Assembly: GCF_001536065.1 (NCBI RefSeq)
Contig: NZ_CZVW01000005.1
Span: 1 to 64,000 of the forward strand
DNA from: Candidatus Chryseopegocella kryptomonas
Lineage (GTDB): Bacteria; Bacteroidota; Ignavibacteria; Kryptoniales; Kryptoniaceae
Direction: 5' to 3'
DNA length: 64,000 bases
A model generated the notes under the pieces. The model was not told where the DNA came from. It saw only the letters and a list, made by a program, of their open reading frames with translations, and searched no databases. Positions 3,374-33,414 of this stretch are shown here, piece by piece; within the stretch, counting starts at the first letter, position 1, and the number at the start of each line of letters is the position of its first letter. The position numbers and the translations under genes were made by a program.

Positions 3374-5140
3374 TCACTTTGTTTCAACTTTAACTGGAAC
3401 CGTCTGCGGAATGTAATCCTCTTCTGCACCAGGGACACTGTATTCATAAGGACCACGATAAACAACAGGGGTTTCAGGACCCCAATTGCCATGGGGTGGT
3501 GGCGAATCCGTCTGCCATTCAAGCGTCGTCGCCTTCCAAGGATTTTTATCCGCTTTCTTGCCTTTGAATATGCTCCAGAAGAAATTGAAGAGGAATAACA
3601 ACTGCGCTGCTCCAGCTACAAACGCCGCAATCGTTATAAATTTGTTTAAGCCAAGAAATTGAGATGTAAAGTTATACTCTGTAAACGCATAATACCTCCT
3701 TGGAACACCCGCAATGCCTTGGAAAAACATCGGGAAGAAAATTAAATAAACACCGATAAATGAACCCCAAAAATGAAGTTTACCAAGTTTATCGTTCATC
3801 ATTCTCCCAAACATTTTCGGGAACCAATGATAAACACCTGCAAACATCCCAAAAGCAGCTGATGTAGCCATTGTAAAGTGGAAATGCGCAACAACAAAAT
3901 ATGTATCGTGCAATTGAATGTCAACAGGCGCCGTCGCAAGAAAAGCTCCTGTTAATGCACCCGGGATAAACAATCCAAGGAAACCAAGTGCAAATAACAT
4001 CGCTGGCGTAAATCTCAAATTACCACGCCATATCGTGACAAGATAATTAAAAACTAAAATTGCTGTTGGAAATGAAATTGCAAGCGTCGTGATAACAAAA
4101 ACCTCACCTAAAACCGGATTCATTCCGCTTACATACATATGATGCCCCCAAACGATCATACTTAAAGCTCCAATTCCAATTATCGCACCAACACTGACTT
4201 TATAAGCAAATAACGGCTTTCTCGCATTTGTTGCAAGAATTTCACCAACAAGAGAAAAAGCAGGTATTGCAACTATGTAAACTTCCGGATGCCCCAAAAA
4301 CCAAAACAAATGTTGCCATAAAATTGGATTTCCACCTTCGTGAGGAACCGGCTGACCACCGAGAACTAATCCACTTGGGACAAAAAAGCTCGTCCCAAAT
4401 TCACGATCAAAAATTAACATAACTGCACCAGCAAGCAAAACAGGAAATGAAAGAAGCCCAAGTATAGCAGTTACAAACATTCCCCACACAGTTATGGGCA
4501 ATCTTCCCATTGACATTCCCTTCGTTCTGAAATTCAAAGTTGTCGTTATATAGTTTAATGCACCAAGAAGCGAAGACACTATAAACAAAGCCATACTTAT
4601 AAGCCAAAGCGTTGCGCCTAAGTCAGCACCCGGAATTGAATTTTTAAGCGCACTCAATGGCGGATAAAATGTCCAGCCAACCGCTGCTGGTCCCGTTTGA
4701 ATAAAAAATGAAGCAAGCATCACAACAGAAGCTGCAAAAAATACCCAGTATGATAGCATGTTCAAAACAGGAAAAGCCATATCCCTTGCTCCAATCTGCA
4801 AAGGTATAAGATAATTTGAAAATGTCCCGCTCAAACCAGCAGTCAAGAGAAAGAAAACCATAATTGTTCCATGCATTGTGATCAAAGCAACATAAAACTC
4901 GGGTTTCAAAATTCCACCCTCAGCCCATTTTCCGAGAATTTTTTCAAGTATCGGCATCGGCTGATTTGGATACGCAAGTTGCAATCTCATCAACCAAGAT
5001 AAAATCATTCCAACTACTCCCCAAAATATTCCCGTGATCAAATACTGCCTTGCTATTGTTTTATGGTCTGTGCTGAAGATATATTTCGTTATAAAACTTT
5101 GTTTATGTGCAACCTCCGTATGTTCCGTGTGAATTGCCAT
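3374..5140 (-). CDS. ctaD: Cytochrome c oxidase subunit I (aa3 type)
   Basis: This is the catalytic subunit that reduces oxygen at the heme a3-CuB site. The 588-residue protein has about twelve membrane segments. The CuB ligands are in GHPEVYI and WGHHMY, and the heme ligand region is LHDTYFVVAHFHF. The D-channel entrance Asp (GARDMAFPVLN) and the HPEVY glutamate are present, giving an A1-like pattern. The position of the canonical K-channel lysine, normally PTG(I/V)K, reads PTAIL with a TTA leucine codon at 4055-4057 (residue 362). The C-terminal tail (about residues 540-588) is hydrophilic. A strong GGAGGAAAAG site precedes the ATG, 23 bases after ctaC. Confidence 0.97.
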   Translation of the reverse strand: MAIHTEHTEVAHKQSFITKYIFSTDHKTIARQYLITGIFWGVVGMILSWLMRLQLAYPNQPMPILEKILGKWAEGGILKPEFYVALITMHGTIMVFFLLTAGLSGTFSNYLIPLQIGARDMAFPVLNMLSYWVFFAASVVMLASFFIQTGPAAVGWTFYPPLSALKNSIPGADLGATLWLISMALFIVSSLLGALNYITTTLNFRTKGMSMGRLPITVWGMFVTAILGLLSFPVLLAGAVMLIFDREFGTSFFVPSGLVLGGQPVPHEGGNPILWQHLFWFLGHPEVYIVAIPAFSLVGEILATNARKPLFAYKVSVGAIIGIGALSMIVWGHHMYVSGMNPVLGEVFVITTLAISFPTAILVFNYLVTIWRGNLRFTPAMLFALGFLGLFIPGALTGAFLATAPVDIQLHDTYFVVAHFHFTMATSAAFGMFAGVYHWFPKMFGRMMNDKLGKLHFWGSFIGVYLIFFPMFFQGIAGVPRRYYAFTEYNFTSQFLGLNKFITIAAFVAGAAQLLFLFNFFWSIFKGKKADKNPWKATTLEWQTDSPPPHGNWGPETPVVYRGPYEYSVPGAEEDYIPQTVPVKVETK

Positions 5141-18753: not shown

Positions 18754-20181
18754 TTACATCACATATTCAATCCCAGCTTCAATAGCCCTTCTATTTAATT
18801 CGTTAAGTTCTTTCCTCTTCACAACTATATCAAGTGCATCAAAAACACTTTCTTTCGTGAGTATCCCCGTGTATCCAATATACGCACCAAGCATAACCAT
18901 ATTTGCAACTTTCGTTGAACCGATGTCATCGGCAATCTTCGTAGCAGGAACTGGAATAACTTCAACATCCTTTCTTGATGGCTCAATGTCAATCAACGAG
19001 TTATCATAAATAATCAAACCACCAGATTTAACTGTTGGCTCAAATTTTTCAAGTGAAGGTCTGTTCATAACGATTAAAGCTGTCGGAATTGAAACAAGGG
19101 GCGATGCAATTTCAAATTCAGAGATATTGACATGACAATTTGCTGTTCCACCTCTCATCTCAGGTCCATAAGATGGAAGCCACGACACATTATACTCTTC
19201 AAGCATTCCCGCTTGTGCGAGGACAAGTCCAAGCAACAAAATTCCTTGCCCACCAAAGCCAGCAACTTTTATCTTCGGATTTTTATATTTTTCAGCAACT
19301 ATGTTTCTTTGATACTTTTTCATCGTTAATGTTTCACCATCAACGCCAATTGCTTTTTTAATTTCCTCTGGGCTTAAAACTTTCTTTTCAAATTTTACAG
19401 GTTCAACTTTGTCTGAGATGTCTTTAAAAACTCCAAGCGGGAAATACTTTGTCATAACTTCATTTATCCATTTTTCTGCGTCTGGTGGATTCATTCCCCA
19501 ACCGGTTGGGCAAGCGGAAAGCGCCTCAACAAATGCGAAACCTTTATTTTCCATCTGAATTTGAATTGCCTTTCTGACTGCTTTCCTTGCACGAGCCATG
19601 TTTTTAGCATCTGTAAGAGCCACTCTTTCAACATAAACGGGTGCATCAAGCGTTGCAATTAATTCAGCCATTTTAAGAGGGTAACCTTCATTACGAATAT
19701 CTCTACCGCGCGGTGTTGTTGTTGTCTTCATACCAGGCAATGTTGTCGGGGCCATCTGCCCGCCTGTCATTCCGTAAATTGCATTGTTAACAAAAAAGAC
19801 AGTGATGTGCTCACCACGATTTGCAGCGTGCAAAATTTCATTCCCACCAATCGCAGCAAGGTCTCCATCTCCCTGATAACTTATGACTATGCTGTGCGGA
19901 TGAACTCTTTTTATCCCCGTTGCAACTGCCGGAGCTCTGCCGTGGGCAACTTGAATATGACCTGTGTCAAAATAATAATACAGAAAAACAGAACAACCAA
20001 CTGGATTTATGATTATAACTCTATCTTGAATTCCAAAATCTTCTATTGCTTCTGCAATTAACTTGTGAAGTTTTCCATGACCACATCCGGGACAATAGTG
20101 CGTGTTAATTTTGTCTGCATCTGGTTTTCTTGTGAAAACCTCATAAAAAGTTCCGGGTTTTTTAAGTATTGTTGTCGCCAT
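18754..20181 (-). CDS. 2-oxoacid:ferredoxin oxidoreductase, fused beta (TPP) and gamma subunits
   Basis: This 475-residue protein joins two subunits that are usually separate. Residues about 1-280 are the thiamine diphosphate-binding beta subunit (HYCPGCGHGKLHKLIAEA, SYQGDGDLAAIGGNE). Residues about 300-475 are the gamma subunit (KIKVAGFGGQGILLLGLVLAQAG, LPSYGPEMRGGTANCHV). With the alpha subunit and ferredoxin upstream it oxidatively decarboxylates a 2-oxoacid to acyl-CoA and reduces ferredoxin. The alpha sequence points to the 2-oxoisovalerate (VorABC) group, but 2-oxoglutarate is not excluded. It starts 9 bases after the alpha stop. The fusion fixes 1:1 stoichiometry. Confidence 0.92.
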   Translation of the reverse strand: MATTILKKPGTFYEVFTRKPDADKINTHYCPGCGHGKLHKLIAEAIEDFGIQDRVIIINPVGCSVFLYYYFDTGHIQVAHGRAPAVATGIKRVHPHSIVISYQGDGDLAAIGGNEILHAANRGEHITVFFVNNAIYGMTGGQMAPTTLPGMKTTTTPRGRDIRNEGYPLKMAELIATLDAPVYVERVALTDAKNMARARKAVRKAIQIQMENKGFAFVEALSACPTGWGMNPPDAEKWINEVMTKYFPLGVFKDISDKVEPVKFEKKVLSPEEIKKAIGVDGETLTMKKYQRNIVAEKYKNPKIKVAGFGGQGILLLGLVLAQAGMLEEYNVSWLPSYGPEMRGGTANCHVNISEFEIASPLVSIPTALIVMNRPSLEKFEPTVKSGGLIIYDNSLIDIEPSRKDVEVIPVPATKIADDIGSTKVANMVMLGAYIGYTGILTKESVFDALDIVVKRKELNELNRRAIEAGIEYVM

Positions 20182-20190
20182 TTTCTCACC

Positions 20191-21267
20191 TCACTTTTGA
20201 TGTTCAATTTCTTTTTCAACTTCCTTAAACACATTTTTAACTTGCTCAATTATTTCCTCAGCCGATGGAACCATCCCACCACATCTTCCATAAAATCTAA
20301 CTTCACACATTCCATTCAAAGCAAGTTTCACATCATCAACCATTTGACCCGTGCTTAATTCAACAACGAAAAATAAACTTGCAGTTTTTGCAAGTTCCCT
20401 TATTTTTTCCTCTGGAAACGGGAAAAGAGTAATCGGTCTTAACAAACCAACTTTATATCCATCTTCACGCATTATATCAACAACACTCTTTAAAATTCTT
20501 GACACAATTCCGTATCCAACGAGTATAACTTCGGCATCTTCGGTTTTATAAGCTTCATATCTTACTTCATTTCTCTTAATTCTTTCATATTTCTCTTTCA
20601 ATCGCAAATTATGCTGTTCCAGTTCCTCTGGGGCAAGATAAATTGATGTGATCAAATTATGTCTTGTTTCAGCCGTTCCATCAACGCACCACGATTTATC
20701 AATTTCTGGAAACTTCGGCTCTGGAAATTCAACAGGTTCAACCATCTGACCTATAAAACCATCTGCCAAGACATAAACAGGTGTTCGGTATTTTTCAGCA
20801 AGATCAAAAGCAAGATATGTTAAGTCGCACATTTCCTGAACAGAATTTGGAGCAAGGACAATGACTTTATAATTACCGTGTCCGCCACCTTTTACAACTT
20901 GATAATAATCTCCCTGCTCCGGTGCGATATTACCAAGACCTGGACCACCTCTCATAATATCAACTATAACCATCGGAAGTTCTGCTCCAGCTGCGTATGA
21001 AACTCCCTCCTGCATAAGGCTTATACCTGGGCTTGATGATGCAGTCATAGCTCTTACACCACCACTTGCTGCACCAAAAAGCATATTAATTGCAGCTACC
21101 TCACTTTCAGCTTGAATAAACACACCGCCTACTTCTGGCATTAAAAGAGAAGCTGCTTCTGCAATCTCACTTGCTGGCGTGATCGGATAACCGAAAAATG
21201 CTCTACAACCCGCAAGAATTGCTCCCCTTACAACCGCTTCATTACCTTTCATCAATTGTTTAGCCAT
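20191..21267 (-). CDS. 2-oxoacid:ferredoxin oxidoreductase alpha subunit (VorB-like)
   Basis: This 358-residue alpha subunit carries the pyrimidine-side domain of the thiamine-dependent oxidoreductase. The features are [70 protein letters not shown] and [20 protein letters not shown]. The short length, about 360 residues, matches the 2-oxoisovalerate ferredoxin oxidoreductase group, better than the roughly 600-residue KorA with a fused gamma domain. Substrate is therefore probably branched-chain 2-oxoacids, but this is a family-level inference. The ATG at 21267 is preferred over TTG 21273 because AGGAAC lies at a good distance. Confidence 0.92.
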
Positions 21268-21294
21268 TTTCAAAGTTCCTTTTTGTTTTTTACA

Positions 21295-21313
21295 CTGCTA
21301 ATGTTTTTAGCAG
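21295..21313. promoter_or_regulatory. Inverted repeat upstream of the alpha subunit gene
   Basis: CTGCTAA and TTAGCAG form a perfect 7-bp inverted repeat with a 5-base spacer. It lies in the 5' region of the alpha subunit mRNA, just after the terminator hairpin, without a U-tract of its own. It may be an mRNA hairpin that protects the processed 5' end or an operator. Confidence 0.4.
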
Positions 21314-21314
21314 T

Positions 21315-21348
21315 TAAAATTAAAAAGCGAGGCATTTTTGCCTCGCTT
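21315..21348 (-). terminator. Intra-operon terminator after the ferredoxin gene
   Basis: A 9-bp stem (AAGCGAGGC with GCCTCGCTT) is followed on the minus strand by TTTTTAATTTT. It overlaps the ferredoxin stop codon and precedes the alpha subunit by about 50 bases. No promoter was recognised between it and the alpha gene, so partial termination would make ferredoxin in excess over the oxidoreductase. Confidence 0.85.
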
Positions 21349-21607
21349 AATTTAAAGTTAAAATCTCTTCATCAACAACTGCACCACGTTTGTAAACAGT
21401 TATAGCACCAGGCTCTGGGCACGCATAAAAACAAACACCACAACCAGTGCAACCATCCCCAACATATTCAGCATAATGATAACCTCTTGAATTGAACTTG
21501 TCAGAAATTTTCAATACATCCACAGGACATGTCTCAATGCAAAGCGTGCAACCTTTGCATTGTTCCTTGTTAATTTTGATGAAGGCTTTTTGAAGTGTAA
21601 TTTGCAT
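21347..21607 (-). CDS. 2x[4Fe-4S] ferredoxin (delta subunit-like)
   Basis: This 86-residue ferredoxin has two four-cysteine sites, [12 protein letters not shown] and [12 protein letters not shown], each binding a [4Fe-4S] cluster. The insert between them ([15 protein letters not shown]) matches the delta subunit of 2-oxoacid:ferredoxin oxidoreductases. It probably accepts electrons from the alpha/beta-gamma enzyme encoded downstream and passes them to other ferredoxin-dependent steps. The gene lies 21 bases after a 105-residue helical protein and is followed by a terminator. Confidence 0.93.
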
Positions 21608-22185: not shown

Positions 22186-23067
22186 GTGAGAAGGTGGCTT
22201 CATAGTCATTATTTGCTTTTTCTTTTATTGATTAGTTTCGTAAGTGGTGCAATTATTTTCATAAATGGTTTTTCCTATTATACCTCATCTTTTGAGAAAA
22301 GACCTTTACAAAGGGAACACGAAGCACTTAAACCCAGTGGTAAAGTAGGGCATGGACTTGGGATCATTGGAACATCAATGATAATAATTGGAGTTGCATC
22401 TTATTCATCAAGAAAAAGATTAAAAATGCTTTCAACTGCTGGAAATATAAAGGACTGGCTAAACATACACATATTTCTTTGCCTTACAGGTCCGATTTTA
22501 ATTCTTTTTCATACGACATTTAAATTTTCCGGAATAGCAGGCGCATCGCTGTGGTCAATGTTATCAGTTGTGTTAAGCGGTATAACAGGAAGATACATCT
22601 ATATTCAAATTCCAAAGGGTCTCAAAGGAAACGAACTTACAGCAATTGAGCTTGAAGAAATGAGAAGGGAAATACAAGGCAAAATAATTAAAGAATTTAA
22701 AGAGCTAAATTCAGATATTTTAAACGCAATTGACAAGATAATTACTTTCAAAAAGCCAACAAAGGAATCAACTTTAAGCGTAATTTTATCACTTCTTGTT
22801 GACGATTTGATCGGACGGAGGAAAAAATTTTCACGGTTGAAAAAACTTTTAAAAAGTTACGGATTAAAACACAAAGATTTAAAAAATCTCGTGAAACTTG
22901 AAGAACAACGGTATCTCATCATGCGTAGAATAATTTTGCTTGACACATTGAGACAGATTTTCAAATACTGGCATGTAATACATCTGCCGTTTACGATAAT
23001 TATGTTTATTCTTCTTACGGTGCATGTGCTTGTCGCTTTTATTCTTGGGTATCTCTGGATTTTCTAA
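22186..23067 (+). CDS. Membrane b-type cytochrome-like protein
   Basis: This 293-residue integral membrane protein has about five hydrophobic segments: near the N-terminus, at about 56-75, 93-115, 118-138 and 268-290. Histidines at helix positions suggest haem b ligation: GHGLG, NIHIFLCLTGPILILFH, and WHVIHLPFTIIMFILLTVH at the C-terminus. A charged cytoplasmic loop of about 110 residues lies in the middle. I read it as a quinol- or NAD(P)H-side membrane cytochrome handing electrons to the three multiheme cytochromes that follow 16 bases later. The family is not certain. GTG 22186 is preferred to TTG 22159 because of the promoter position. Confidence 0.68.
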   Translation: MRRWLHSHYLLFLLLISFVSGAIIFINGFSYYTSSFEKRPLQREHEALKPSGKVGHGLGIIGTSMIIIGVASYSSRKRLKMLSTAGNIKDWLNIHIFLCLTGPILILFHTTFKFSGIAGASLWSMLSVVLSGITGRYIYIQIPKGLKGNELTAIELEEMRREIQGKIIKEFKELNSDILNAIDKIITFKKPTKESTLSVILSLLVDDLIGRRKKFSRLKKLLKSYGLKHKDLKNLVKLEEQRYLIMRRIILLDTLRQIFKYWHVIHLPFTIIMFILLTVHVLVAFILGYLWIF

Positions 23068-23083
23068 AAAAGAATGAAAACAT

Positions 23084-24673
23084 ATGTTTAATTTCACATA
23101 CATAATTTTGCTTATCTTACTCCAAATATCGCCGGGGAAATTATCCGAATCACATAAAAATCTTGAAGGCGTAGATAATTGTCTAAAATGTCACGCCGTT
23201 GCTCAAAAAATTACAAATGATAAATGTTTGAACTGCCATACTGAGATAAAAAATTTAATCTCAAACGAAAAGGGATACCACTATTTCGTTAAAGATGAAA
23301 ATTGCGCAAATTGTCATAAAGAACATTTTGGAAGAAATTTCAAGTTGGTAAACTTTGATGAAAAATCTTTTGATCACAACCTCACCAAATTTAAACTTGA
23401 AGGAGCTCATGCAAAATTAAAATGTTCAAGTTGCCATAATCAAAAATTTTTTAAAGGTGAGAAATACAAAAACGGAACTTTCCTCGGACTTGGAACAAAA
23501 TGTCTGGATTGCCATCAAGATGCTCATATGGGACAGCTAAGTCAAAACTGCCTTGAATGTCATACATTTGAAAAATGGGATCTGGCTCTAAAAACATTTA
23601 ACCACGATAAGGCAAGATTTAAACTCACCGGGCTTCATAAAAATGTAAATTGTTATTCCTGTCATCCGAAATCTAAATCAGGAAATGTGCTCTTTACCGT
23701 TTTTAAAAATCTAATCTTTTCAAGTTGTTCAAATTGCCATAATGATTTCCATAAAGGTAAATTCGGCGAATGCGAAAAATGTCATTCAACAACCGGATGG
23801 CAAAATTTAAAAATAAAATTTGACCACAACTTAACAGATTACAAGCTTGATGGTATGCATAATTTACTCAAATGTGAAAAATGCCATAACAAAGTCAAAA
23901 AGATCAAAAATGAAAGTGATTATATCAGCAATTTCAAAATTAGACACAAGTTATGCCTTGACTGTCACACGGACTATCACGGCGGGGTCTTTATGAAAAG
24001 AAAATCAAAAGGGGATTGCTCGGATTGTCATAATACCAGCGGGTTTGCCCTGATAACTTTCACAACGACAAGACATAATCTTGAGACAAGATTTAAATTA
24101 ACAGATTCACACTTAACAATTCCATGTTTCAAGTGCCATAGAATAAATAACACCCAAAACTTTTATTGGATTAATTTGCTTTGTCAATCATGTCACATTG
24201 ACAACCACGGAAACCAGTTTGCAAACGATAAAGGCGAAACATACTGCGAAAGATGTCATAAAACGACAAAATGGGATGATTTAAAATTTAATCACAACGA
24301 AACGAAATTTAAACTTGATGGAAAACATAATCAAGTTCCTTGCAATAAATGTCATTACGAAAAATTAACAGTGAATAATTTTCAATTTGTAAAGTATGTC
24401 AACACACCACTTGAATGTGAATCATGCCATAAAGATATACATCTTGGACAATTTGCAAGCAATAATTCTTATACGGATTGTTCACGATGCCACACCCCAG
24501 AAGGTTGGAAAGAACTTAAATTTAACCACAACACTGATTCAAAATTTAAACTTACAGGGGCTCATGAAAAATTAGAATGTCAAAAATGTCATAAAATTGA
24601 GAATTCACCAGTAGGTAATTTTACGAGATATAAACCATTGCCAATAAATTGTGAGGGTTGCCATGCTGGTTAG
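23084..24673 (+). CDS. Exported multiheme cytochrome c with 20 CxxCH motifs
   Basis: This 529-residue exported protein has a hydrophobic N-terminus and 20 CxxCH haem-attachment sites, about one per 26 residues. They are arranged in a repeated three-haem module: a segment F-(N/D)-H-x(4)-F-K-L-x-G-x-H-x(5)-C-x2-C-H, then CxxCH followed by (D/N)xH, then CxxCH followed by xxxW. The extra histidines (FNH, GxH, DxH) occur in similar number to the haems and can supply sixth ligands. Its end overlaps the next cytochrome start by 11 bases. It probably carries electrons through the periplasm or outer membrane. Confidence 0.9.
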   Translation: MFNFTYIILLILLQISPGKLSESHKNLEGVDNCLKCHAVAQKITNDKCLNCHTEIKNLISNEKGYHYFVKDENCANCHKEHFGRNFKLVNFDEKSFDHNLTKFKLEGAHAKLKCSSCHNQKFFKGEKYKNGTFLGLGTKCLDCHQDAHMGQLSQNCLECHTFEKWDLALKTFNHDKARFKLTGLHKNVNCYSCHPKSKSGNVLFTVFKNLIFSSCSNCHNDFHKGKFGECEKCHSTTGWQNLKIKFDHNLTDYKLDGMHNLLKCEKCHNKVKKIKNESDYISNFKIRHKLCLDCHTDYHGGVFMKRKSKGDCSDCHNTSGFALITFTTTRHNLETRFKLTDSHLTIPCFKCHRINNTQNFYWINLLCQSCHIDNHGNQFANDKGETYCERCHKTTKWDDLKFNHNETKFKLDGKHNQVPCNKCHYEKLTVNNFQFVKYVNTPLECESCHKDIHLGQFASNNSYTDCSRCHTPEGWKELKFNHNTDSKFKLTGAHEKLECQKCHKIENSPVGNFTRYKPLPINCEGCHAG

Positions 24674-26321
24674 ATTAATTTTGCTTTTTATTCTCTTTCA
24701 AAGTTTTGCTTACTCGCAGAATTCACCACACGGAAAGATAAATTTTCCCTGCTCCGATTGTCATACAACTGAAACATGGAAGGTTGATTTAAACAAAATA
24801 AAGTTTAACCACGATAAAACTGGCTTTAAATTACTCGGGCAACACAGTCGCATAAAATGTAATGATTGCCATCAGAAACTTATATTTTCAAAAACGCCGA
24901 CGCAATGCGTCGCCTGCCATTACGATTTTCATAAATCAACCCTTGGTCTTCAATGTCAGAGATGTCATAACTTTGATACATGGAAAATTCCAGATTTTCG
25001 TGAAAAGCATAATCAAACCAGATTTGCACTTGCGTTCGCTCATAAAAATCTTGATTGTTCATCTTGCCATAAATCACTTGCCGAATTCTCATCCTTACCC
25101 GTTGAATGTTATGGATGTCATAAGAAAAATTATGAAAATGTATCTTTTCCAAATCATGCACTTGCCAAATTTAGCTTAAATTGTGTTGAATGTCATCCTG
25201 TAAATGCGCTGACTTGGAAAAACATAAATTTCGTTCATCCTGACCAACCTCTTAAACTTGATGGTAAACACGCTATGACGGATTGTTATAAATGTCATAA
25301 TGGGATATTTGCTGGCACCCCAGCAGATTGTTTTAGTTGCCATCAACATAATTTCGTAAATGCAAAAAATCCCAATCATGTAAATTCAGGAATTAATCAT
25401 GAGTGTAGTTCATGTCATACAACAAATAGCTGGAAACCATCAACATTTGACCATAATAAAACAAGTTTTAAACTCACAGGTGCACACTTAACAGTTGAAT
25501 GTTCATCCTGCCATAAAGGAACGCTAACAGGCACTCCAACAGATTGTTATTCCTGTCATCAAAACAATTTTGCTTCAACGACAAATCCAGATCATAAATT
25601 GCTTGGTTTTCCAACAAATTGTGAACAATGTCATACGACAAATGGATGGAGACCTGCTACATTTGACCATAACAAAACAAATTTTGCATTAACTGGAAAA
25701 CATACAGCAGTTCAATGTCAAGATTGCCATAAATCAACTTACAAAGGCACTCCAACAGATTGTTATTCCTGTCATCAAAACAATTTTGCTTCAACGACAA
25801 ATCCAGATCATAAATTGCTTGGTTTTCCAACAAATTGTGAACAATGTCATACGACAAATGGATGGAGACCTGCTACATTTGACCATAACAAAACAAATTT
25901 TGCATTAACTGGAAAACATACAGCAGTTCAATGTCAAGATTGCCATAAATCAACTTACAAAGGCACTCCAACAGATTGTTATTCCTGTCATCAAAACAAC
26001 TATGCTAATGCGCTTATACCTGTGCATACAGTTGGTTATCCGTATAATTGTGAAATGTGCCACACAACAAGCGGGTGGAGACCATCAAGCTTTAATCACG
26101 ATGCTCAGTACTTTAAAATCTACTCTGGAAAACATAGTTTTTCTAAGGGGCGATGGAAACTTTGTGCTGATTGTCATCTTTCAGCTCCGAATTCGTTTAA
26201 CGAGTTCTCATGCACTACGAAATGTCATAACAACAGAACAAAAATAGATAATGAACACAAAAATGTTTCGGGCTACATCTATGATAACAACGCTTGCTAT
26301 TCTTGCCATAGAAATGTTTAA
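24663..26321 (+). CDS. Exported multiheme cytochrome c with 22 haem motifs
   Basis: This 552-residue protein has a signal peptide (MLVRLILLFILFQSFAYSQ). It has 21 CxxCH sites plus one CxxxCH (CTTKCH) near the C-terminus, so up to 22 haems. It uses the same module as the upstream gene. Residues 290-361 and 362-433 are identical 72-residue triheme units encoded by an exact 216-bp tandem duplication. The end (FSCTTKCH...NVSGYIYDNNACYSCHRNV) is shared with the next gene. ATG 24663 is chosen over an upstream GTG because it starts the signal peptide. It lies within the predicted electron-conduit operon. Confidence 0.92.
   Translation: MLVRLILLFILFQSFAYSQNSPHGKINFPCSDCHTTETWKVDLNKIKFNHDKTGFKLLGQHSRIKCNDCHQKLIFSKTPTQCVACHYDFHKSTLGLQCQRCHNFDTWKIPDFREKHNQTRFALAFAHKNLDCSSCHKSLAEFSSLPVECYGCHKKNYENVSFPNHALAKFSLNCVECHPVNALTWKNINFVHPDQPLKLDGKHAMTDCYKCHNGIFAGTPADCFSCHQHNFVNAKNPNHVNSGINHECSSCHTTNSWKPSTFDHNKTSFKLTGAHLTVECSSCHKGTLTGTPTDCYSCHQNNFASTTNPDHKLLGFPTNCEQCHTTNGWRPATFDHNKTNFALTGKHTAVQCQDCHKSTYKGTPTDCYSCHQNNFASTTNPDHKLLGFPTNCEQCHTTNGWRPATFDHNKTNFALTGKHTAVQCQDCHKSTYKGTPTDCYSCHQNNYANALIPVHTVGYPYNCEMCHTTSGWRPSSFNHDAQYFKIYSGKHSFSKGRWKLCADCHLSAPNSFNEFSCTTKCHNNRTKIDNEHKNVSGYIYDNNACYSCHRNV
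25530..25961 (+). repeat. Exact 216-bp tandem duplication within the 22-haem cytochrome gene
   Basis: Bases 25530-25745 and 25746-25961 are identical as far as I can read them, and the first 38 bases of the unit recur a third time at 25962-25999. Each unit is in frame and encodes 72 residues with three CxxCH motifs and three further histidines. Silent-site identity shows that the duplication is recent or kept uniform by recombination. Confidence 0.93.
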
Positions 26322-26325
26322 AAAC
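26292..26325 (+). repeat. 34-bp direct repeat, copy 1 (3' end of the 22-haem gene)
   Basis: This 34-base segment, running from GCTTGCTATTC to GTTTAAAAAC, is identical to 27337-27370 at the 3' end of the next cytochrome gene. It encodes ACYSCHRNV, the stop codon and a few bases beyond. Because identity includes non-coding bases it reflects duplication or gene conversion rather than protein constraint alone. Confidence 0.9.
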
Positions 26326-26343
26326 AAAAATTTTTACCGAAAG

Positions 26344-27366
26344 ATGTTTAGATATTTTCCCTTGCTTTTATTAATTACAAGTTTTGTGTTTTCACAATCA
26401 CCGCATGGCGAAATTAAAATTGATTGCTCAAACTGTCATACAACATCTGAATGGATACCGATAAAGGAAAAAATTGACTTTGATCACTCAACGACTGGCT
26501 TTCCACTGCTTGACTCACACGCTGGACTTAATTGTATTGATTGTCATAAGAAAGAAAAAGATGGAAGTTTAATTTTTTCTAAAGTTGAATCAAGATGTTC
26601 TGCCTGCCATTTTGATTTTCACAATGGCAACCTTGGAGACAAATGTCAGAGTTGTCATTCTTTCAAGACATGGAAATTATATGATGTTGTAAGAAAACAC
26701 AACAAATCAAGATTTCCTCTCCTTGGCGCTCATGCATCTGTAAAGTGCGAAAGTTGTCATTTAAAAAATGGGATCTTTCAAACTTATTTAATTCCACTTG
26801 AATGCATATCCTGCCACGAGAAAAATTACATTGAAGCGAAAAAACCAAACCATATCTCTTTAAATTTCAGCAAAAACTGCAATGATTGCCATACGATTAA
26901 AACAGTTTCGTGGCATGGGGAAAGAGCGTTTCACAACAAAACTGGATTTCCTCTAACAGGGGCTCATGCTATTATATCCTGTGATAAATGCCATCAAAAC
27001 TGGGAATTTAACTTAACTTTGCCCGCAGATTGTTACAGCTGTCATAAAACGCAATATGAACAAACAACAAATCCAAATCATCAACTTGCTGGTTTCCCAA
27101 CCAATTGCTCAGTTTGTCACAATACCTCAAGCTGGAGACCTGCAACTAATTTTGATCACGATAAAAACTTTTTCAGAATTTACTCGGGAGAGCATAGAAA
27201 CAAATGGAGAAGTTGCAACGATTGTCATATTAATCCAGCGGATTACAAAAACTTTTCATGCATCACATATTGCCATTCGCAAGCTTCAACTGATAGAAAG
27301 CATAGAAATGTATCTGGTTATAGATATGAAAGTTCTGCTTGCTATTCTTGCCATAGAAATGTTTAA
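26344..27366 (+). CDS. Exported multiheme cytochrome c with 13 haem motifs
   Basis: This 340-residue protein has a signal peptide (MFRYFPLLLLITSFVFSQ). It has 12 CxxCH sites and one CxxxCH (CITYCH) near the end, so up to 13 haems. The N-terminus (SPHGEIKIDCSNCHTTSEW) and C-terminus (NVSGYRYESSACYSCHRNV) match those of the upstream 22-haem protein, so this looks like a shorter paralogue lacking the central triheme units. An alternative ATG at 26313 overlaps the upstream stop and would add ten residues (MFKNKNFYRK). The outer-membrane barrel gene follows after 19 bases. Confidence 0.9.
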   Translation: MFRYFPLLLLITSFVFSQSPHGEIKIDCSNCHTTSEWIPIKEKIDFDHSTTGFPLLDSHAGLNCIDCHKKEKDGSLIFSKVESRCSACHFDFHNGNLGDKCQSCHSFKTWKLYDVVRKHNKSRFPLLGAHASVKCESCHLKNGIFQTYLIPLECISCHEKNYIEAKKPNHISLNFSKNCNDCHTIKTVSWHGERAFHNKTGFPLTGAHAIISCDKCHQNWEFNLTLPADCYSCHKTQYEQTTNPNHQLAGFPTNCSVCHNTSSWRPATNFDHDKNFFRIYSGEHRNKWRSCNDCHINPADYKNFSCITYCHSQASTDRKHRNVSGYRYESSACYSCHRNV

Positions 27367-27370
27367 AAAC
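27337..27370 (+). repeat. 34-bp direct repeat, copy 2 (3' end of the 13-haem gene)
   Basis: This copy is identical to 26292-26325. Recombination between the two would delete the 1045-bp interval, removing the 13-haem gene while leaving an intact stop and end on the 22-haem gene. Confidence 0.9.
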
Positions 27371-27385
27371 TAAATTTGGTGCTCT

Positions 27386-29014
27386 ATGATAACTTCAAAG
27401 TTTAAAATCTTGTTTTTTGCGACGGTATCTCTGTTATTATTTAAACTCCACTTATTCGCTCAGATAAAAAAGGATACAATTGAAATAAAAGGTAAAGTAA
27501 TTTTTTTAACAATTGACGAAGTTTATTTTGACATCGGCGCAAAAGATGGGCTCTCGGTAAATGACACAGTATTAATTTTCAGAAATGACTCAAAAATTGA
27601 CTCATTGTTTATCACAGATATTTCAGAACAGTATTCTAAAGCAAAATCAGAATTTGAGAAAGTCAAAAATATAAAAATTGGGGATATCGCCGTAGTGCGA
27701 AAAATTAAAGAACAAGTCCAAGAACAACACGAGGTAAAAATTTTATCCGAACAAAACAAAGAAAACAATGTAAAGCTACAAACTGAAAAGGTTGAATTTA
27801 AAGCCTTAACTAAAAAAGGACAGACATTAAAGTCGCATGGCAGGATTGCACTACAAAATTATTCCCTGTTTTCACAATCTTACAGCTATCAAAGACCCGC
27901 TCTTTTATTCGTTGCAAATTTTGACAAGTTCTTTTTTGACAATCTAAAAATTAACACCTATGCAAAAATTGAGAATAATTTCTCAAAAAGTCCAATTTCG
28001 TCAAATAAACAAACCCGGCTTTTGATTTACCAACTCTCAATTGAATACCAACTCACAAATCTTGTCCTTTCGGCAGGAAGGATTTTCCCATACCAAAGCC
28101 CGGGCATCGGCGGAAGCGATGGAATTCAACTAATGATGAGAAATCAAACTCTTTCATTTGGCTTTGTAGCGGGAACTCAACCACAAATGGACAACAACAC
28201 ATTCAACTTTTCAAATCCAAAATTTTCGTTTTTTATCGCAAAAGATTTTAGAAATTCATCAATCTCCGGAAGAATGTCGCTCTCATACTCAAAAATTCTC
28301 AAAAACAGAAAACTAGAAGAAGAATTCCTTTATGTTCAAAACTTCATCAGAGTTAGCAAATTAACAGATATATATCTATCTGCGCAGGTTGATTTAAACA
28401 AATCAACAAATGGACAAACTGTTAAAAAATTAAATTTCCGAAATGTTTTCACATCTTTGTCATTTACACCATTGAACTGGTTCAGATTCTCACTTGATTT
28501 TAACACTTATAGAAGCGCATATCTTTTTGAAACAATGAAAAATTTGCCGGACTCAATCATTGATAAAAGATTTAGAAGCGATCTCCGCGGTAGATTTTAT
28601 ATAAACCTGCCTTTTGACATAACTTTAAATTTAACTTCATCACTTCGCTCAATTCAAGGCGAAAAAAGAAAAGATTCTTTTTCATCTGGGTATGTCAGCA
28701 TTGACGATATTTTTTCATCAGGGTTTGACATAACAGCTGGTTTATCATACGCAAATACACGTTTCAGCAAAATTTTGAGCGAAGAAATTTCATTTGAAAA
28801 ATTTTTCAGTAATAGAAACATCGGATTGAATTGCAATTTTACCTCATACGCTTATACAGCGTCCGTTGGTGAGAAATTTACAAATTTAATTTTGCGCGCT
28901 GGCTTTATTTTTAACATTGGCAAAAGTTATAGCGTTTTAATTGACTATGAAAGAAACTGGCAAAAATCAGCAGGCACAAATTTAATTTTCGGTGAGATCT
29001 CGTATAGATTCTAA
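27386..29014 (+). CDS. Outer-membrane beta-barrel protein with small N-terminal domain
   Basis: This 542-residue protein has a signal peptide ending near LHLFAQ. A small beta domain follows at about residues 30-105 (VYFDIGAKDGLSVNDTVLIF), then a charged linker. From about 150 to the end there are regularly alternating beta strands ending in aromatic residues, and the last residue is Phe (EISYRF), the outer-membrane barrel signature. About 18 to 20 strands fit the length. I found no haem motif. Lying directly after three multiheme cytochromes, it is a candidate porin sheath of a porin-cytochrome conduit, although it has no recognised similarity to MtrB. Confidence 0.78.
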   Translation: MITSKFKILFFATVSLLLFKLHLFAQIKKDTIEIKGKVIFLTIDEVYFDIGAKDGLSVNDTVLIFRNDSKIDSLFITDISEQYSKAKSEFEKVKNIKIGDIAVVRKIKEQVQEQHEVKILSEQNKENNVKLQTEKVEFKALTKKGQTLKSHGRIALQNYSLFSQSYSYQRPALLFVANFDKFFFDNLKINTYAKIENNFSKSPISSNKQTRLLIYQLSIEYQLTNLVLSAGRIFPYQSPGIGGSDGIQLMMRNQTLSFGFVAGTQPQMDNNTFNFSNPKFSFFIAKDFRNSSISGRMSLSYSKILKNRKLEEEFLYVQNFIRVSKLTDIYLSAQVDLNKSTNGQTVKKLNFRNVFTSLSFTPLNWFRFSLDFNTYRSAYLFETMKNLPDSIIDKRFRSDLRGRFYINLPFDITLNLTSSLRSIQGEKRKDSFSSGYVSIDDIFSSGFDITAGLSYANTRFSKILSEEISFEKFFSNRNIGLNCNFTSYAYTASVGEKFTNLILRAGFIFNIGKSYSVLIDYERNWQKSAGTNLIFGEISYRF

Positions 29015-29033
29015 AAATCAACAGAGATTATTT

Positions 29034-30344
29034 ATGGAAACATTAGCGACGCTTGGCATCACTATTTTTTTGATCTTCGTTATTTTTGTTCCGTATTACA
29101 TTAGATTCAGGAGAAAAGAGGAATTAGCAAAGAAAAAACTTGAAGAAGCTAAAATTGATGGATTGGTTGAAGCATACGGGCTTCATCCAAAAATAGATCA
29201 AAATGTTTGCATAGGTTGCGGTAGCTGTGTTAAGGCTTGTCCAGAAGGAGATGTCCTTGAAGTTGTTGAAGGTAAGGCGACGATCATAAATGGTTATAAA
29301 TGTGTTGGACATGGCTTATGTGCCCAAGTATGTCCTGTTGGAGCAATTGAACTTGTTCTTGGTAGCCCGACAAAAGTTATTGAAGTCCCAGAAGTTGATG
29401 AAAATTATCAAACGAATGTTGAGGGCATCTTTATCATAGGCGAACTTGGTGGTATCGGATTAATTAGAAACGCGGTTGAACAAGCAAAAAAATGTATTGA
29501 ATATATCGCAAAAAATAGACCCAAAAGCGAAACCCAAGAACAATATGACCTTATAATTGTAGGTGCTGGTCCGGCTGGATTGACCGCCTCTCTTTCTGCG
29601 CTAAAATACAAACTAAAATACATAACGCTTGAACAAGAAGAGAACATCGGAGGAACAATTTTGCACTATCCAAGACAAAAAATTGTAATGACTTTTCCCG
29701 TTGAACTTCCACTCTATGGCAAGTTGAAATTTTATGAAGTTCCAAAGGAGACGCTATATCAAGCTTGGATTGAAATTGTTAATAAATTTTCTCTAAACAT
29801 AAAGACGGAGCAAAAAGTTGTTGACATTGTAGTTGAAGATGGGCTTTTCAAAGTTTTAACTGAAAAAGGAGAAAGTTATTATGCCAAAAATGTCGTCCTT
29901 GCCCTTGGAAGGCGCGGGTCTCCGAGAAAACTTGGCGTTCCAGGTGAAGAACTTGGCAAAGTTTCATACAAATTAATTGAAGCAGAAAATTACAACAACT
30001 GCAACATCCTTGTAGTTGGTGGAGGAGACAGCGCTGTGGAATCCGCAATGGCTTTAGCAAATCAAATAAACAACAACATCACGATTTCATACCGTGGGGA
30101 TGCTTTCAAATCAATAAAGCAAAGAAATCGCGAAAGAATTCAAAAATATATACAAGAGGGCAAAATCAAAGTGATTTTTAATTCAAATGTCAAAGAGATA
30201 AAACCTAATTCGGTAATTTTAAAAACTCTAAACGGAGAGATTGAACTCCCGAACGATTATGTTTTTATCTTTATAGGTGGAACCCTTCCATACGATCTGC
30301 TTAAAAAGATTGGGGTGAAAATAATTCAAAAAAGCGGTAATTAA
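29034..30344 (+). CDS. Membrane-anchored ferredoxin/FAD-dependent NAD(P) oxidoreductase
   Basis: This 436-residue protein has one N-terminal membrane segment (about residues 4-24). Two Fe-S sites follow at about 60-105, and then a thioredoxin-reductase-like FAD/NAD(P) domain (IIVGAGPAGLTASLSA at about 170, ILVVGGGDSAVESAMALA at about 325). No CxxC redox disulfide is present in the NAD domain, so it is not a thioredoxin reductase. The first cluster motif is regular (CIGCGSCVKACP). The second reads CVGHGLCAQVCP, with His where the second Cys is expected. It could connect NAD(P)H or ferredoxin to the membrane cytochrome of the same operon. ATG 29034 is preferred over GTG 28992, which overlaps the barrel gene. 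Confidence 0.8.
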   Translation: METLATLGITIFLIFVIFVPYYIRFRRKEELAKKKLEEAKIDGLVEAYGLHPKIDQNVCIGCGSCVKACPEGDVLEVVEGKATIINGYKCVGHGLCAQVCPVGAIELVLGSPTKVIEVPEVDENYQTNVEGIFIIGELGGIGLIRNAVEQAKKCIEYIAKNRPKSETQEQYDLIIVGAGPAGLTASLSALKYKLKYITLEQEENIGGTILHYPRQKIVMTFPVELPLYGKLKFYEVPKETLYQAWIEIVNKFSLNIKTEQKVVDIVVEDGLFKVLTEKGESYYAKNVVLALGRRGSPRKLGVPGEELGKVSYKLIEAENYNNCNILVVGGGDSAVESAMALANQINNNITISYRGDAFKSIKQRNRERIQKYIQEGKIKVIFNSNVKEIKPNSVILKTLNGEIELPNDYVFIFIGGTLPYDLLKKIGVKIIQKSGN

Positions 30345-30381: not shown

Positions 30382-30409
30382 TATTTAAAAAAATTCAAAG
30401 GCGGTGGTT

Positions 30410-31435
30410 ATGGCGAACGAAAGGATAAAGAATCAAATTTTACGCTCGCTTTCATCTGGACCGAAAACTTTCTGGGAAATTATGAACCGACAGGATGGAA
30501 CCCTGAAAGAACTATACCAAACCTTGAACAAACTCTTAAAAGAAAATGTGATAAAAAGAGAAAACGATATTTTTTATCTCAATGGTCAACCTAAACTAAA
30601 AACATATCCTGATCCAAGATGTGAGAATTGTAGAGGCGGGATACAAATAAAAGGTGATTACATCAAAATTTTTGAAACTTATAAAGAGATCGTAAAAAAC
30701 AGACCTCTGCCATCAATTGAATATGACCAAGGTTTTATAAGCGCTGAAGATGCGATAAGAAGAGCAATTTTCATGTATGAAAGAGGAGACATTGAAGGAA
30801 AATCAATCTTTATCCTTGGAGACGATGACCTTGTAAGCATTGTAATTGGATTGCTTGGCGTTGCAAAAAATATAACTGTTCTTGAAATAGATAAGAGATT
30901 AAACGATTTCATAAACGATGTCGCAAAAGAATACAATCTGAACATCAAAACCATAACACACGATGTCCTTGATTCCTTTCCGAGAAAAGAAATGAACAAA
31001 TATGATACCTTCCTCACTGATCCTGTTGAGACATTGCAGGGCTTCATACTTTTCATTTACAGATGTATGCAGGCATTGAAAAAGAGAAATTCGGTTGGGT
31101 ATTTTGGGCTTACGCACATTGAAGCAAATCTTGAAAAGTGGTATCAAATTCAAAGGTTTATACTTTCAACAGGGATGGTTATAACGGATATAATTCGTGA
31201 TTTCTCATATTATCCCGAAGATGAAAATCAATGGATTGAAAATTATAATTATTACCTCATAAACAGAAAACTCAAAATCGGCATTCCTAATGTCAATTGG
31301 TTCAGGTCCTCATTTTTTAGAGTTGAGGCGTATGACAAAATTAAACTTAGAAAACTTCCGAAAATAAAATCAGTCCACGATTTATATGTTGATAATGAAG
31401 CTTGGTGCACGGTTGAACTTGACAGTTGGAAATGA
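30410..31435 (+). CDS. bpsA: N4-bis(aminopropyl)spermidine synthase family protein
   Basis: This 341-residue protein matches the BpsA family (DUF43), which adds two aminopropyl groups from decarboxylated SAM to spermidine and so makes branched polyamines. An N-terminal winged-helix-like domain (about 1-65) with a CENCRG motif precedes a Rossmann methyltransferase-like domain. The domain has SIFILGDDDLVSIVIGLLG and DTFLTDPVETLQGF as the substrate and catalytic loops. Known members come from Thermus, Aquifex and hyperthermophilic archaea, where branched polyamines stabilise nucleic acids at high temperature. The ATG at 30410 has AAAGGCGG upstream, so the GTG at 30404 was not used. Confidence 0.85.
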   Translation: MANERIKNQILRSLSSGPKTFWEIMNRQDGTLKELYQTLNKLLKENVIKRENDIFYLNGQPKLKTYPDPRCENCRGGIQIKGDYIKIFETYKEIVKNRPLPSIEYDQGFISAEDAIRRAIFMYERGDIEGKSIFILGDDDLVSIVIGLLGVAKNITVLEIDKRLNDFINDVAKEYNLNIKTITHDVLDSFPRKEMNKYDTFLTDPVETLQGFILFIYRCMQALKKRNSVGYFGLTHIEANLEKWYQIQRFILSTGMVITDIIRDFSYYPEDENQWIENYNYYLINRKLKIGIPNVNWFRSSFFRVEAYDKIKLRKLPKIKSVHDLYVDNEAWCTVELDSWK

Positions 31436-32922: not shown

Positions 32923-33414
32923 ATGATTAAAAAAGCAATTCTTCTCGTCGGGCTTGTTTCTCTTGCCGTTTCAATATCAATTCTCAATCTCGCCGGTGAA
33001 TCAAAATCAACTGTTCCATACCCAGAGGGATACCGCAACTGGGTTCATGTAAAATCAATGCTTATCTTACAAGGTCATCCGCTTTACGATGCTTTTGGTG
33101 GAATTCATCATATTTACGCAAACAGCAAAGCCCTCACCGGCTATAAAACAGGCAAATTCCCTGATGGTTCTGTAATTGTTTTTGATCTTCTTGAAGCGAA
33201 ATTTGAAAATAACACATATGTTGAGGGTGAGAGAAAAGTTGTTGGAGTGATGTATAAGGATTCAAGGAAGTTCAAAGAAACTGGTGGATGGGGGTTTGAA
33301 GCGTTCAAGGGAAATACGAAAGAAAGGGTCGTCAAAAATGCTGAACAAGATTGTTTTTCCTGCCATGCGTCGCAGGAATCAACAGATTTTGTTTTTAGTC
33401 AATACAGGAAGTAA
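32923..33414 (+). CDS. Cytochrome P460 family protein
   Basis: This 163-residue exported protein has a signal peptide (about residues 1-24), the P460 fold with PYPEGYRNWVHVKSM, KFPDGSVIVFDLLEA and GGWGFEAFKGNT, and one haem site CFSCH at about 144-148. Cytochromes P460 and the related cytochromes c'-beta bind or oxidise hydroxylamine and nitric oxide in the periplasm. The Lys that cross-links to haem in true P460 cannot be settled without a structure-based alignment, so an NO-binding c'-beta-like role is equally possible. It forms a single-gene unit with a promoter, a palindromic operator and a terminator. Confidence 0.87.
   Translation: MIKKAILLVGLVSLAVSISILNLAGESKSTVPYPEGYRNWVHVKSMLILQGHPLYDAFGGIHHIYANSKALTGYKTGKFPDGSVIVFDLLEAKFENNTYVEGERKVVGVMYKDSRKFKETGGWGFEAFKGNTKERVVKNAEQDCFSCHASQESTDFVFSQYRK

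What the first reader, a model, noticed from the sequence alone, without database searches (positions are those of the whole stretch)
22186..30344. Six-gene operon with 55 haem-c sites: candidate transmembrane electron conduit
A b-type membrane cytochrome, three exported cytochromes with 20, 22 and 13 haem motifs, a porin-like barrel and a membrane-bound Fe-S/FAD oxidoreductase are packed with gaps of 0 to 22 bases behind one promoter. This supplies every step from NAD(P)H or quinol to the cell surface. None of the cytochromes resembles MtrA/MtrC or OmcS in motif layout as I read them, and the barrel has no MtrB-type N-terminal CxxC. It may be a distinct route for extracellular electron transfer in this lineage.
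Basis: partly seen in the sequence, partly recalled or inferred. Interest (0 to 1): 0.78.

Follow-up and report, generated by a model that had tools for sequence, protein, structure and literature searches.

The report
Bacteroidota six-gene envelope-spanning electron conduit
These six genes most likely build a haem-packed wire that carries electrons from the cell's NAD(P)H through both membranes to the outside; it is a Bacteroidota relative of the little-studied "PCC3" conduits, with an added NAD(P)H-fed input enzyme, and it also sits on a plasmid of a cultured type strain where it could be tested.

Summary
22186-30344 holds six co-directional genes: a di-haem b cytochrome, a 20-haem cytochrome, 22- and 13-haem cytochromes (each count includes one CX3CH), an outer-membrane barrel, and a membrane-anchored Fe-S/FAD oxidoreductase. 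AlphaFold gives the barrel 22 strands. The set is an evolutionary unit in Bacteroidota. In 395 genomes sampled across the phylum the b cytochrome occurs in 41 and the barrel in 39, all among those 41. 40 of 44 evaluable loci carry all parts.

The bridging cytochrome has 20 or 23 haems. The other cytochromes have 3n+1 haems (10 to 88; 63 of 65), through duplication of a three-haem, about 72-residue repeat.

It is not wholly new. The b cytochrome carries the published motif signature of the putative PCC3 conduits of Proteobacteria, whose layout is the same. I found no published description of the Bacteroidota branch, of the operon-encoded NAD(P)H flavo-iron-sulfur partner (with an invariant His in one cluster motif, 91 of 91), or of the 3n+1 rule.

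Most likely NAD(P)H electrons flow outward through FAD/Fe-S, b haems, the 20-haem bridge and the barrel-held cytochrome. Conduit function is well supported by comparison; donor and direction are inferred; nothing was measured.

The parts
22186..23067 (+). g1: 293-aa inner-membrane di-haem b cytochrome of the PCC3/PCC4 'IMP' type; WX3HX13H at residues 91 and 262, SGxxG at 131
   Evidence: motif definition from PMC5566968; weak Pfam matches to cytochrome b561 and DUF4405 below cut-off
23084..24673 (+). g2: 529-aa exported 20-haem cytochrome; proposed periplasm-bridging wire; all 20 CxxCH invariant in 15 homologues
   Evidence: PDB profile hits GSU1996 (3ov0_A, 9.9e-10) and MtrA (6r2q_A, 2.8e-6)
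24663..26321 (+). g3: 552-aa 22-haem 'SPHG' repeat cytochrome (21 CxxCH plus 1 CX3CH), signal peptide, no lipobox; proposed surface or barrel-held wire
   Evidence: Cytochrome_C7 repeats
25412..26006 (+). 216-bp (72-aa, three-haem) tandem repeat, 2.8 copies, 90% matches, inside g3
26344..27366 (+). g4: 340-aa 13-haem 'SPHG' cytochrome (12 plus 1 CX3CH), paralogue of g3 and directly before the barrel; 10-haem orthologues stand there in other genomes
27386..29014 (+). g5: 542-aa outer-membrane protein; small N-terminal beta domain (residues 31-107), then a 22-strand barrel (residues 149-541)
   Evidence: no PDB or Pfam sequence family
29034..30344 (+). g6: 436-aa oxidoreductase: N-terminal membrane anchor, ferredoxin-like domain (CxxCxxCxxxCP then CxxHxxCxxxCP), TrxR/FNR-like FAD and NAD(P) domains
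29301..29336 (+). CVGHGLCAQVCP: second Fe-S motif with His (residue 93) in place of the second Cys; His in 91 of 91 homologues

Best explanation
The operon encodes a complete cytoplasm-to-surface electron conduit of the putative PCC3 type with its own NAD(P)H input. The anchored g6 takes electrons from cytoplasmic NAD(P)H through FAD and two Fe-S centres and passes them to the two b haems of g1 in the inner membrane, as a NADPH oxidase or ferric reductase does. g1 hands them to the 20-haem g2, which bridges the periplasm. g2 feeds a repeat cytochrome (g4 and/or g3) held in the 22-strand barrel g5, and the haem chain of the larger repeat cytochrome reaches outside the cell, where an electron sink such as a mineral, humic substance or partner cell is reduced. 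Shown by sequence comparison: the parts, their conservation as a unit, the motifs, the barrel fold and the repeat growth. Inferred: cofactor order, NAD(P)H as donor, which cytochrome sits in the barrel, outward direction, external acceptor.
For: Unit: 40 of 44 evaluable loci hold all five parts; g1 and barrel co-occur in 39 of 395 phylum genomes, with no barrel without g1. g1 has two HX13H motifs and SGxxG in 91 of 91 members. Adjacency of the repeat cytochrome and barrel is 43 of 44 by script, 44 of 44 with the L050 variant. The barrel model has pLDDT 84, 22 strands, and aligns to 22-strand receptor barrels with Z about 20. NAD(P)H donor: in subtype II g6 lies directly beside g1; g1-like proteins on plasmids of Methylophaga, Variovorax, Alteromonas, Acetobacter and Spirosoma sit beside an unrelated FAD/NAD/2Fe-2S reductase and a seven-haem cytochrome, and in Sphingobium beside a Pyr_redox/4Fe-4S protein, so the b cytochrome is repeatedly paired with NAD(P)H flavo-Fe-S enzymes. 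g6 lacks invariant Cys outside the Fe-S motifs, so it is not a disulfide reductase. Fixed bridge length (20 or 23 haems) against free outer length (10 to 88) fits a periplasm-spanning part and an external part. A ccsA haem-assembly gene flanks the module in Emticicia and relatives. The host genome has cytochrome c assembly genes.
Against: No biochemistry. Localisation of g2, g3 and g4 is inferred from signal peptides alone. The structure model of g4 failed (pLDDT 45), so its fit in the barrel is untested. A quinol site in g1 is not excluded. Published PCC3 descriptions mention no g6, so g6 may not be essential to such conduits. The host also has two COX1-type oxidases, so it need not depend on external acceptors. 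Some carriers are isolates not known as metal reducers.
Confidence: 0.57

Rival explanations
1. Quinone-linked conduit: g1 is a quinol oxidase like the cytochrome b subunits of Ni-Fe hydrogenase or formate dehydrogenase, and g6 serves another reaction or only tops up the chain.
For: He et al. 2017 proposed exactly this for the PCC3 inner-membrane protein. g1 has weak similarity to b561/Ni_hydr_CYTB.
Against: g6 is anchored, in the operon throughout, and beside g1 in subtype II; g1-like proteins elsewhere pair with unrelated NAD(P)H reductases. The operon holds no separate quinol dehydrogenase.
Confidence: 0.22
2. Electron uptake: the conduit runs inward, taking electrons from Fe(II), Mn(II) or a partner cell to an oxidase or to NAD(P)+.
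For: PCC3 was described from Fe(II) oxidisers and modelled inward. The host has oxidases, COX1 at C5:3617-5056 and on C8. Haem wires are reversible in principle.
Against: Inward flow from Fe(II) to NAD(P)+ through g1 is uphill and against the membrane potential (general bioenergetics). Most carriers are Bacteroidota, mainly heterotrophs by general knowledge; a carbon-fixation link was not tested.
Confidence: 0.15
3. Electron store or extracellular reductase (capacitor, metal detoxification) rather than a respiratory conduit.
For: A capacitor role was suggested for large Saprospiraceae and Burkholderiales cytochromes (PMC11495043, PMC7399161). g1-like cassettes occur in copper islands.
Against: A store needs no obligatory barrel or fixed 20/23-haem bridge.
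Confidence: 0.1
4. Soluble periplasmic N- or S-cycle respiratory enzymes that happen to lie next to a porin.
For: Generic cytochrome c7/c3 Pfam matches.
Against: Barrel co-occurrence in 395 genomes and fixed adjacency. No match to nitrite, hydroxylamine or tetrathionate reductase families above cut-off.
Confidence: 0.02

Closest known systems
PCC3 putative porin-cytochrome complex (He et al. 2017, PMC5566968; Gallionellaceae survey PMC10734462)
   Same: Same set: about 300-aa inner-membrane protein with two WX3HX13H and SGXXG, a periplasmic cytochrome of about 21 haems, a larger repeat-rich second cytochrome of variable haem number (up to 85), and a porin. Periplasm-spanning length was already proposed there.
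   Different: Reported in Alpha-, Beta- and Gammaproteobacteria. The description I read names no NAD(P)H/FAD/Fe-S partner. Bridge has 21/24/27 haems in Gallionellaceae, 20/23 here. Direct sequence homology of the porin and cytochromes could not be tested.
MtrCAB / MtoAB / PioAB
   Same: Works alike: barrel plus multihaem cytochrome through the outer membrane. g2 profile matches MtrA weakly.
   Different: Barrel is not MtrB_PioB, has 22 not 26 strands (26 from general knowledge) and no N-terminal CxxC; bridge has 20 haems; NAD(P)H module instead of CymA.
Pcc of Geobacter type (OmbB-OmaB-OmcB), previously reported in Ignavibacterium album and Melioribacter
   Same: Barrel plus two multihaem cytochromes in a Bacteroidota lineage.
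   Different: Haem numbers 8 and 12 in Geobacter (PMC4245776); whether the porins are related was not testable here.
NADPH oxidase / ferric reductase (NOX/FRE)
   Same: NAD(P)H to FAD to two b haems bound by HX13H pairs across the membrane.
   Different: Separate TrxR/FNR-like flavoprotein with Fe-S clusters; no Ferric_reduct Pfam match in g1.
GSU1996-type c7 polymer cytochromes of Geobacter
   Same: Three-haem c7-like repeats in a chain; best PDB profile hit of g2 (3ov0_A).
   Different: Here part of a barrel operon with up to 88 haems.

Membership tests
PCC3 | About 300-aa inner-membrane protein with two WX3HX13H and an SGXXG motif | tested here: met
   293 aa; WX3HX13H at 91 and 262, SGxxG at 131; all 91 relatives have at least two HX13H and SGxxG, 74 have two strict WX3HX13H
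PCC3 | Five transmembrane helices in that protein | tested here: inconclusive
   Five hydropathy peaks, some weak; no topology program available
PCC3 | Periplasmic cytochrome of about 21 haems | tested here: met
   20 haems, 20 or 23 in relatives; location itself not testable
PCC3 | Extracellular cytochrome with many, variable haems | tested here: inconclusive
   10 to 88 haems in relatives; surface location not testable with these tools
PCC3 | Outer-membrane porin in the cluster | tested here: met
   22-strand barrel; adjacent to the repeat cytochrome
PCC3 | Sequence homology with PCC3 porin and cytochromes | not testable with these tools
   No PCC3 type sequences (Sideroxydans, Leptothrix) were in reach
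MtrCAB/MtoAB/PioAB | MtrB_PioB barrel (PF11854) | tested here: not met
   No match in the window barrel or 17 relatives, none in the genome; profile of 18 barrels finds no PDB chain at E<=1
MtrCAB/MtoAB/PioAB | DmsE/MtrA decahaem family (TIGR03508) above cut-off | tested here: not met
   g2 52.2 bits against a 192.2 cut-off
Geobacter Pcc (OmbB/OmaB/OmcB), Oet, Ext | Homologous porin | not testable with these tools
   No alignment of these porins available
NOX/FRE ferric reductases | Ferric_reduct domain PF01794 in the b cytochrome | tested here: not met
   Not among Pfam matches of 12 members
NOX/FRE ferric reductases | Two HX13H haem-binding pairs | tested here: met
   91 of 91 members
YpdA/thioredoxin reductase | Family score cut-off and catalytic Cys | tested here: not met
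   168 bits against a 340 cut-off; only invariant Cys are in the Fe-S motifs

The most novel reading that the evidence does not exclude
A distinct, quinone-independent class of envelope-spanning conduit: one operon that carries electrons from NAD(P)H to beyond the outer membrane, with a His-liganded Fe-S entry enzyme, a periplasm-length bridge fixed at 20 or 23 haems, and an outer wire whose length evolves in steps of three haems; found in about a tenth of sampled Bacteroidota, including cultured strains not known for metal respiration.
Probability: 0.4. Interest if true: 0.75.

Novelty: new variant of a known kind. Interest (0 to 1): 0.58.

Why it matters
If right, a large share of Bacteroidota (Ignavibacteria, Kryptonia-like, Saprospiraceae, Prolixibacteraceae, Cytophagales) carry a ready-made conduit tied straight to NAD(P)H. 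That would bypass the quinone pool and give a genetic handle on the 'undescribed' >100-haem Bacteroidota cytochromes of wastewater plants (PMC11495043). The whole module lies on plasmid pEMTOL02 of a type strain, which makes a direct test possible and suggests it can move between hosts. The 3n+1 rule offers a natural length series for studying conduction along haem wires.

Tried and rejected
AlphaFold of g4 with 14 homologues gave pLDDT 45 and pTM 0.21; discarded, no fold search run. Foldseek and VIA lists for the barrel show generic outer-membrane barrels and no MtrB; absence is not evidence. A CRP/FNR-like box (TTGACCTACATCAC, 22132) upstream of g1 occurs no more often in the window than by chance. 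Promoter and terminator scans were at background. Paper searches for Kryptonia, Emticicia and Prolixibacter with multihaem cytochromes found no description of the module; OetABI has a different make-up (one periplasmic, one lipoprotein cytochrome, porin). I first thought the bridge-length idea new; it is already in PMC5566968 and PMC10734462. Occurrence outside Bacteroidota could only be probed through the plasmid collection.
Full report
WHAT IS THERE. Six co-directional genes lie at 22186-30344 with gaps of 16, -11, 22, 19 and 19 bases. g1 is a 293-aa b-type membrane cytochrome. g2, g3 and g4 are exported cytochromes with 20, 22 and 13 haem sites; g3 and g4 each include one CX3CH. g5 is a 542-aa protein with no Pfam or NCBIfam match. 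g6 is a membrane-anchored protein with a ferredoxin-like domain and FAD and NAD(P) domains of the TrxR/FNR fold. Shuffled proteins would give fewer than one CxxCH on average. The window lies in an unnamed 2.07-Mb, 79%-complete genome. A near-neighbour BpsA gene and a Kryptoniota-titled record among the relatives hint at a Kryptonia-like host, but this is not shown.

THE BARREL. AlphaFold on 18 homologues gives mean pLDDT 84, a small beta domain (residues 31-107) and 22 long strands from 149 to 541. It aligns over about 340-365 residues to 22-strand receptor barrels with Z about 17-21 and rmsd about 4-5, but without their plug. No sequence relation to MtrB was found: no PF11854 match in 18 members, no PDB chain at E<=1, none in the genome.

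AN EVOLUTIONARY UNIT. Barrel homologues in 20 of 61 relatives (two of them weak, broken hits); the intact ones sit in the same kind of cluster. A genome-wide scan with g1 found 374 relatives; the best 80 carry Bacteroidota, Ignavibacteria, Chlorobiota or Kryptoniota titles (one is titled only 'bacterium') and include Melioribacter, Saprospiraceae, Lewinella, Prolixibacteraceae, Maribellus sp. YY47 and a Cytophagaceae MAG. Of 44 loci with at least 9 kb downstream, 40 hold all parts. In loci where the end can be judged, the repeat cytochrome is followed by the barrel in 43 of 44 by script; the exception, L050, has the barrel after a cytochrome with SVHG instead of SPHG. In 395 genomes across the phylum, g1 occurs in 41 and the barrel in 39, all 39 within the 41. 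The two without are a degenerate fragment (G143) and a cluster cut by a contig end (G400). In the window's genus only two of seven genomes show the module, the other copy cut by its contig end, so it seems to be gained or lost readily.

TWO SUBTYPES. Subtype I (window) has the order g1, bridge, repeat cytochrome(s), barrel, g6; subtype II has g1, g6, bridge, repeat cytochrome(s), barrel (13 and 33 loci). The g6 tree splits into two deep groups with 100/100 support. Subtype I g6 keeps Cys at residue 62 of the first cluster motif; subtype II mostly has Ser or Thr (three rows there carry Cys). All 91 have His at residue 93 of the second motif.

HAEM NUMBERS. Deduplicated bridging cytochromes have 20 (56), 23 (19) or 21 (1) haems. 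The 'SPHG' cytochromes start right after the signal peptide with a conserved SPHG and end in a conserved cap. In a first count 67 of 75 cytochromes were 3n+1, three of the rest being unrelated neighbours. In the stricter count 63 of 74 were 3n+1, but nine of the eleven exceptions are 20-haem bridging proteins that slipped through my filter, so 63 of 65 true members obey the rule. The sequences are related by descent, so I quote no p-value. The cause is visible: spacing repeats such as 32-16-25 residues, and in the window a 216-bp tandem repeat (72 aa, three haems) of 2.8 copies at 90% identity.

RELATION TO KNOWN SYSTEMS. He et al. 2017 (PMC5566968) described putative PCC3 clusters in Proteobacteria: porin, periplasmic cytochrome (median 21 haems), extracellular cytochrome (median 34, up to 85), and a roughly 300-aa inner-membrane protein with five helices, two WX3HX13H motifs and SGXXG. 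The window's g1 has exactly these motifs at 91, 262 and 131. PMC10734462 already proposed that the PCC3 bridge spans the periplasm. I therefore call the module PCC3-like; homology of porin and cytochromes with PCC3 could not be tested. What I did not find described is the Bacteroidota branch, g6, and the 3n+1 rule; the paper library is open-access only and supplements were closed, so an earlier report is possible. PMC11495043 noted 'undescribed' >100-haem Bacteroidota cytochromes, most common among Saprospiraceae; this module is a likely home for proteins of that kind (an 88-haem member was seen here).

WHY NAD(P)H. He et al. suggested quinone for the inner-membrane protein while noting its likeness to NADPH oxidase. 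Three things here favour NAD(P)H. g6 is anchored and part of the operon in almost all loci. In subtype II it lies next to g1. And distant g1-like proteins on plasmids pair with unrelated reductases: FAD_binding_6/NAD_binding_1/2Fe-2S plus a seven-haem cytochrome in Methylophaga, Acetobacter, Variovorax, Alteromonas and Spirosoma, and a Pyr_redox/4Fe-4S protein plus a ten-haem cytochrome in Sphingobium. This is association, not proof.

A TESTABLE STRAIN. Emticicia oligotrophica DSM 17448 carries the whole module on plasmid pEMTOL02 (NC_018749.1, 81299-89995): g1, g6, a 23-haem and a 40-haem cytochrome, and the barrel, with a ccsA haem-assembly gene just upstream; the record names them only hypothetical, NAD(P)-binding and cytochrome c3 family.

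LIMITS. No localisation, redox or physiological data exist. The g4 structure model failed, so the cytochrome-in-barrel step is inferred by analogy with MtrAB. Direction of flow and the external partner are open; the host has two COX1-type oxidases.

Noticed in passing
window 30404-31435: BpsA-type branched-chain polyamine synthase (PF01861, 2.5e-76) 60 bases after g6 and syntenic in the sister genome G005; a thermophile trait by general knowledge.
   Followed up: partly
window 32923-33414: Cytochrome P460 family protein (PF16694, 3.8e-35) with one CxxCH.
   Followed up: no
window 18754-21607, - strand: 2-oxoacid:ferredoxin oxidoreductase-like subunits and a small ferredoxin run divergently from the conduit operon.
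   Followed up: no
window 3374-5140, - strand: COX1-type haem-copper oxidase; a second copy on contig C8 of the same genome, so the host can probably use oxygen.
   Followed up: partly
L130 6337-8415 (G000 contig C10): Nine-haem cytochrome of 692 aa whose C-terminus looks like a type IX secretion sorting tail, so possibly a T9SS-secreted surface cytochrome.
   Followed up: no
L129 6995-8722 (G000 contig C2): Eight-haem hydroxylamine-oxidoreductase-like cytochrome behind a run of large membrane-complex genes.
   Followed up: no
L146, L148, L149, L150, L151: Plasmid cassette of FAD/NAD/2Fe-2S reductase, g1-like b cytochrome and seven-haem cytochrome, near copper-resistance genes in most and beside a hydrogenase in Alteromonas: looks like a separate, unnamed NAD(P)H-to-periplasm electron line.
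   Followed up: partly
L143 19857-20627 and six other loci (L070, L137, L079, L086, L107, L096): A GW-domain protein gene follows the barrel in several Cytophagales, Saprospiraceae and Prolixibacteraceae clusters; possible accessory part.
   Followed up: partly
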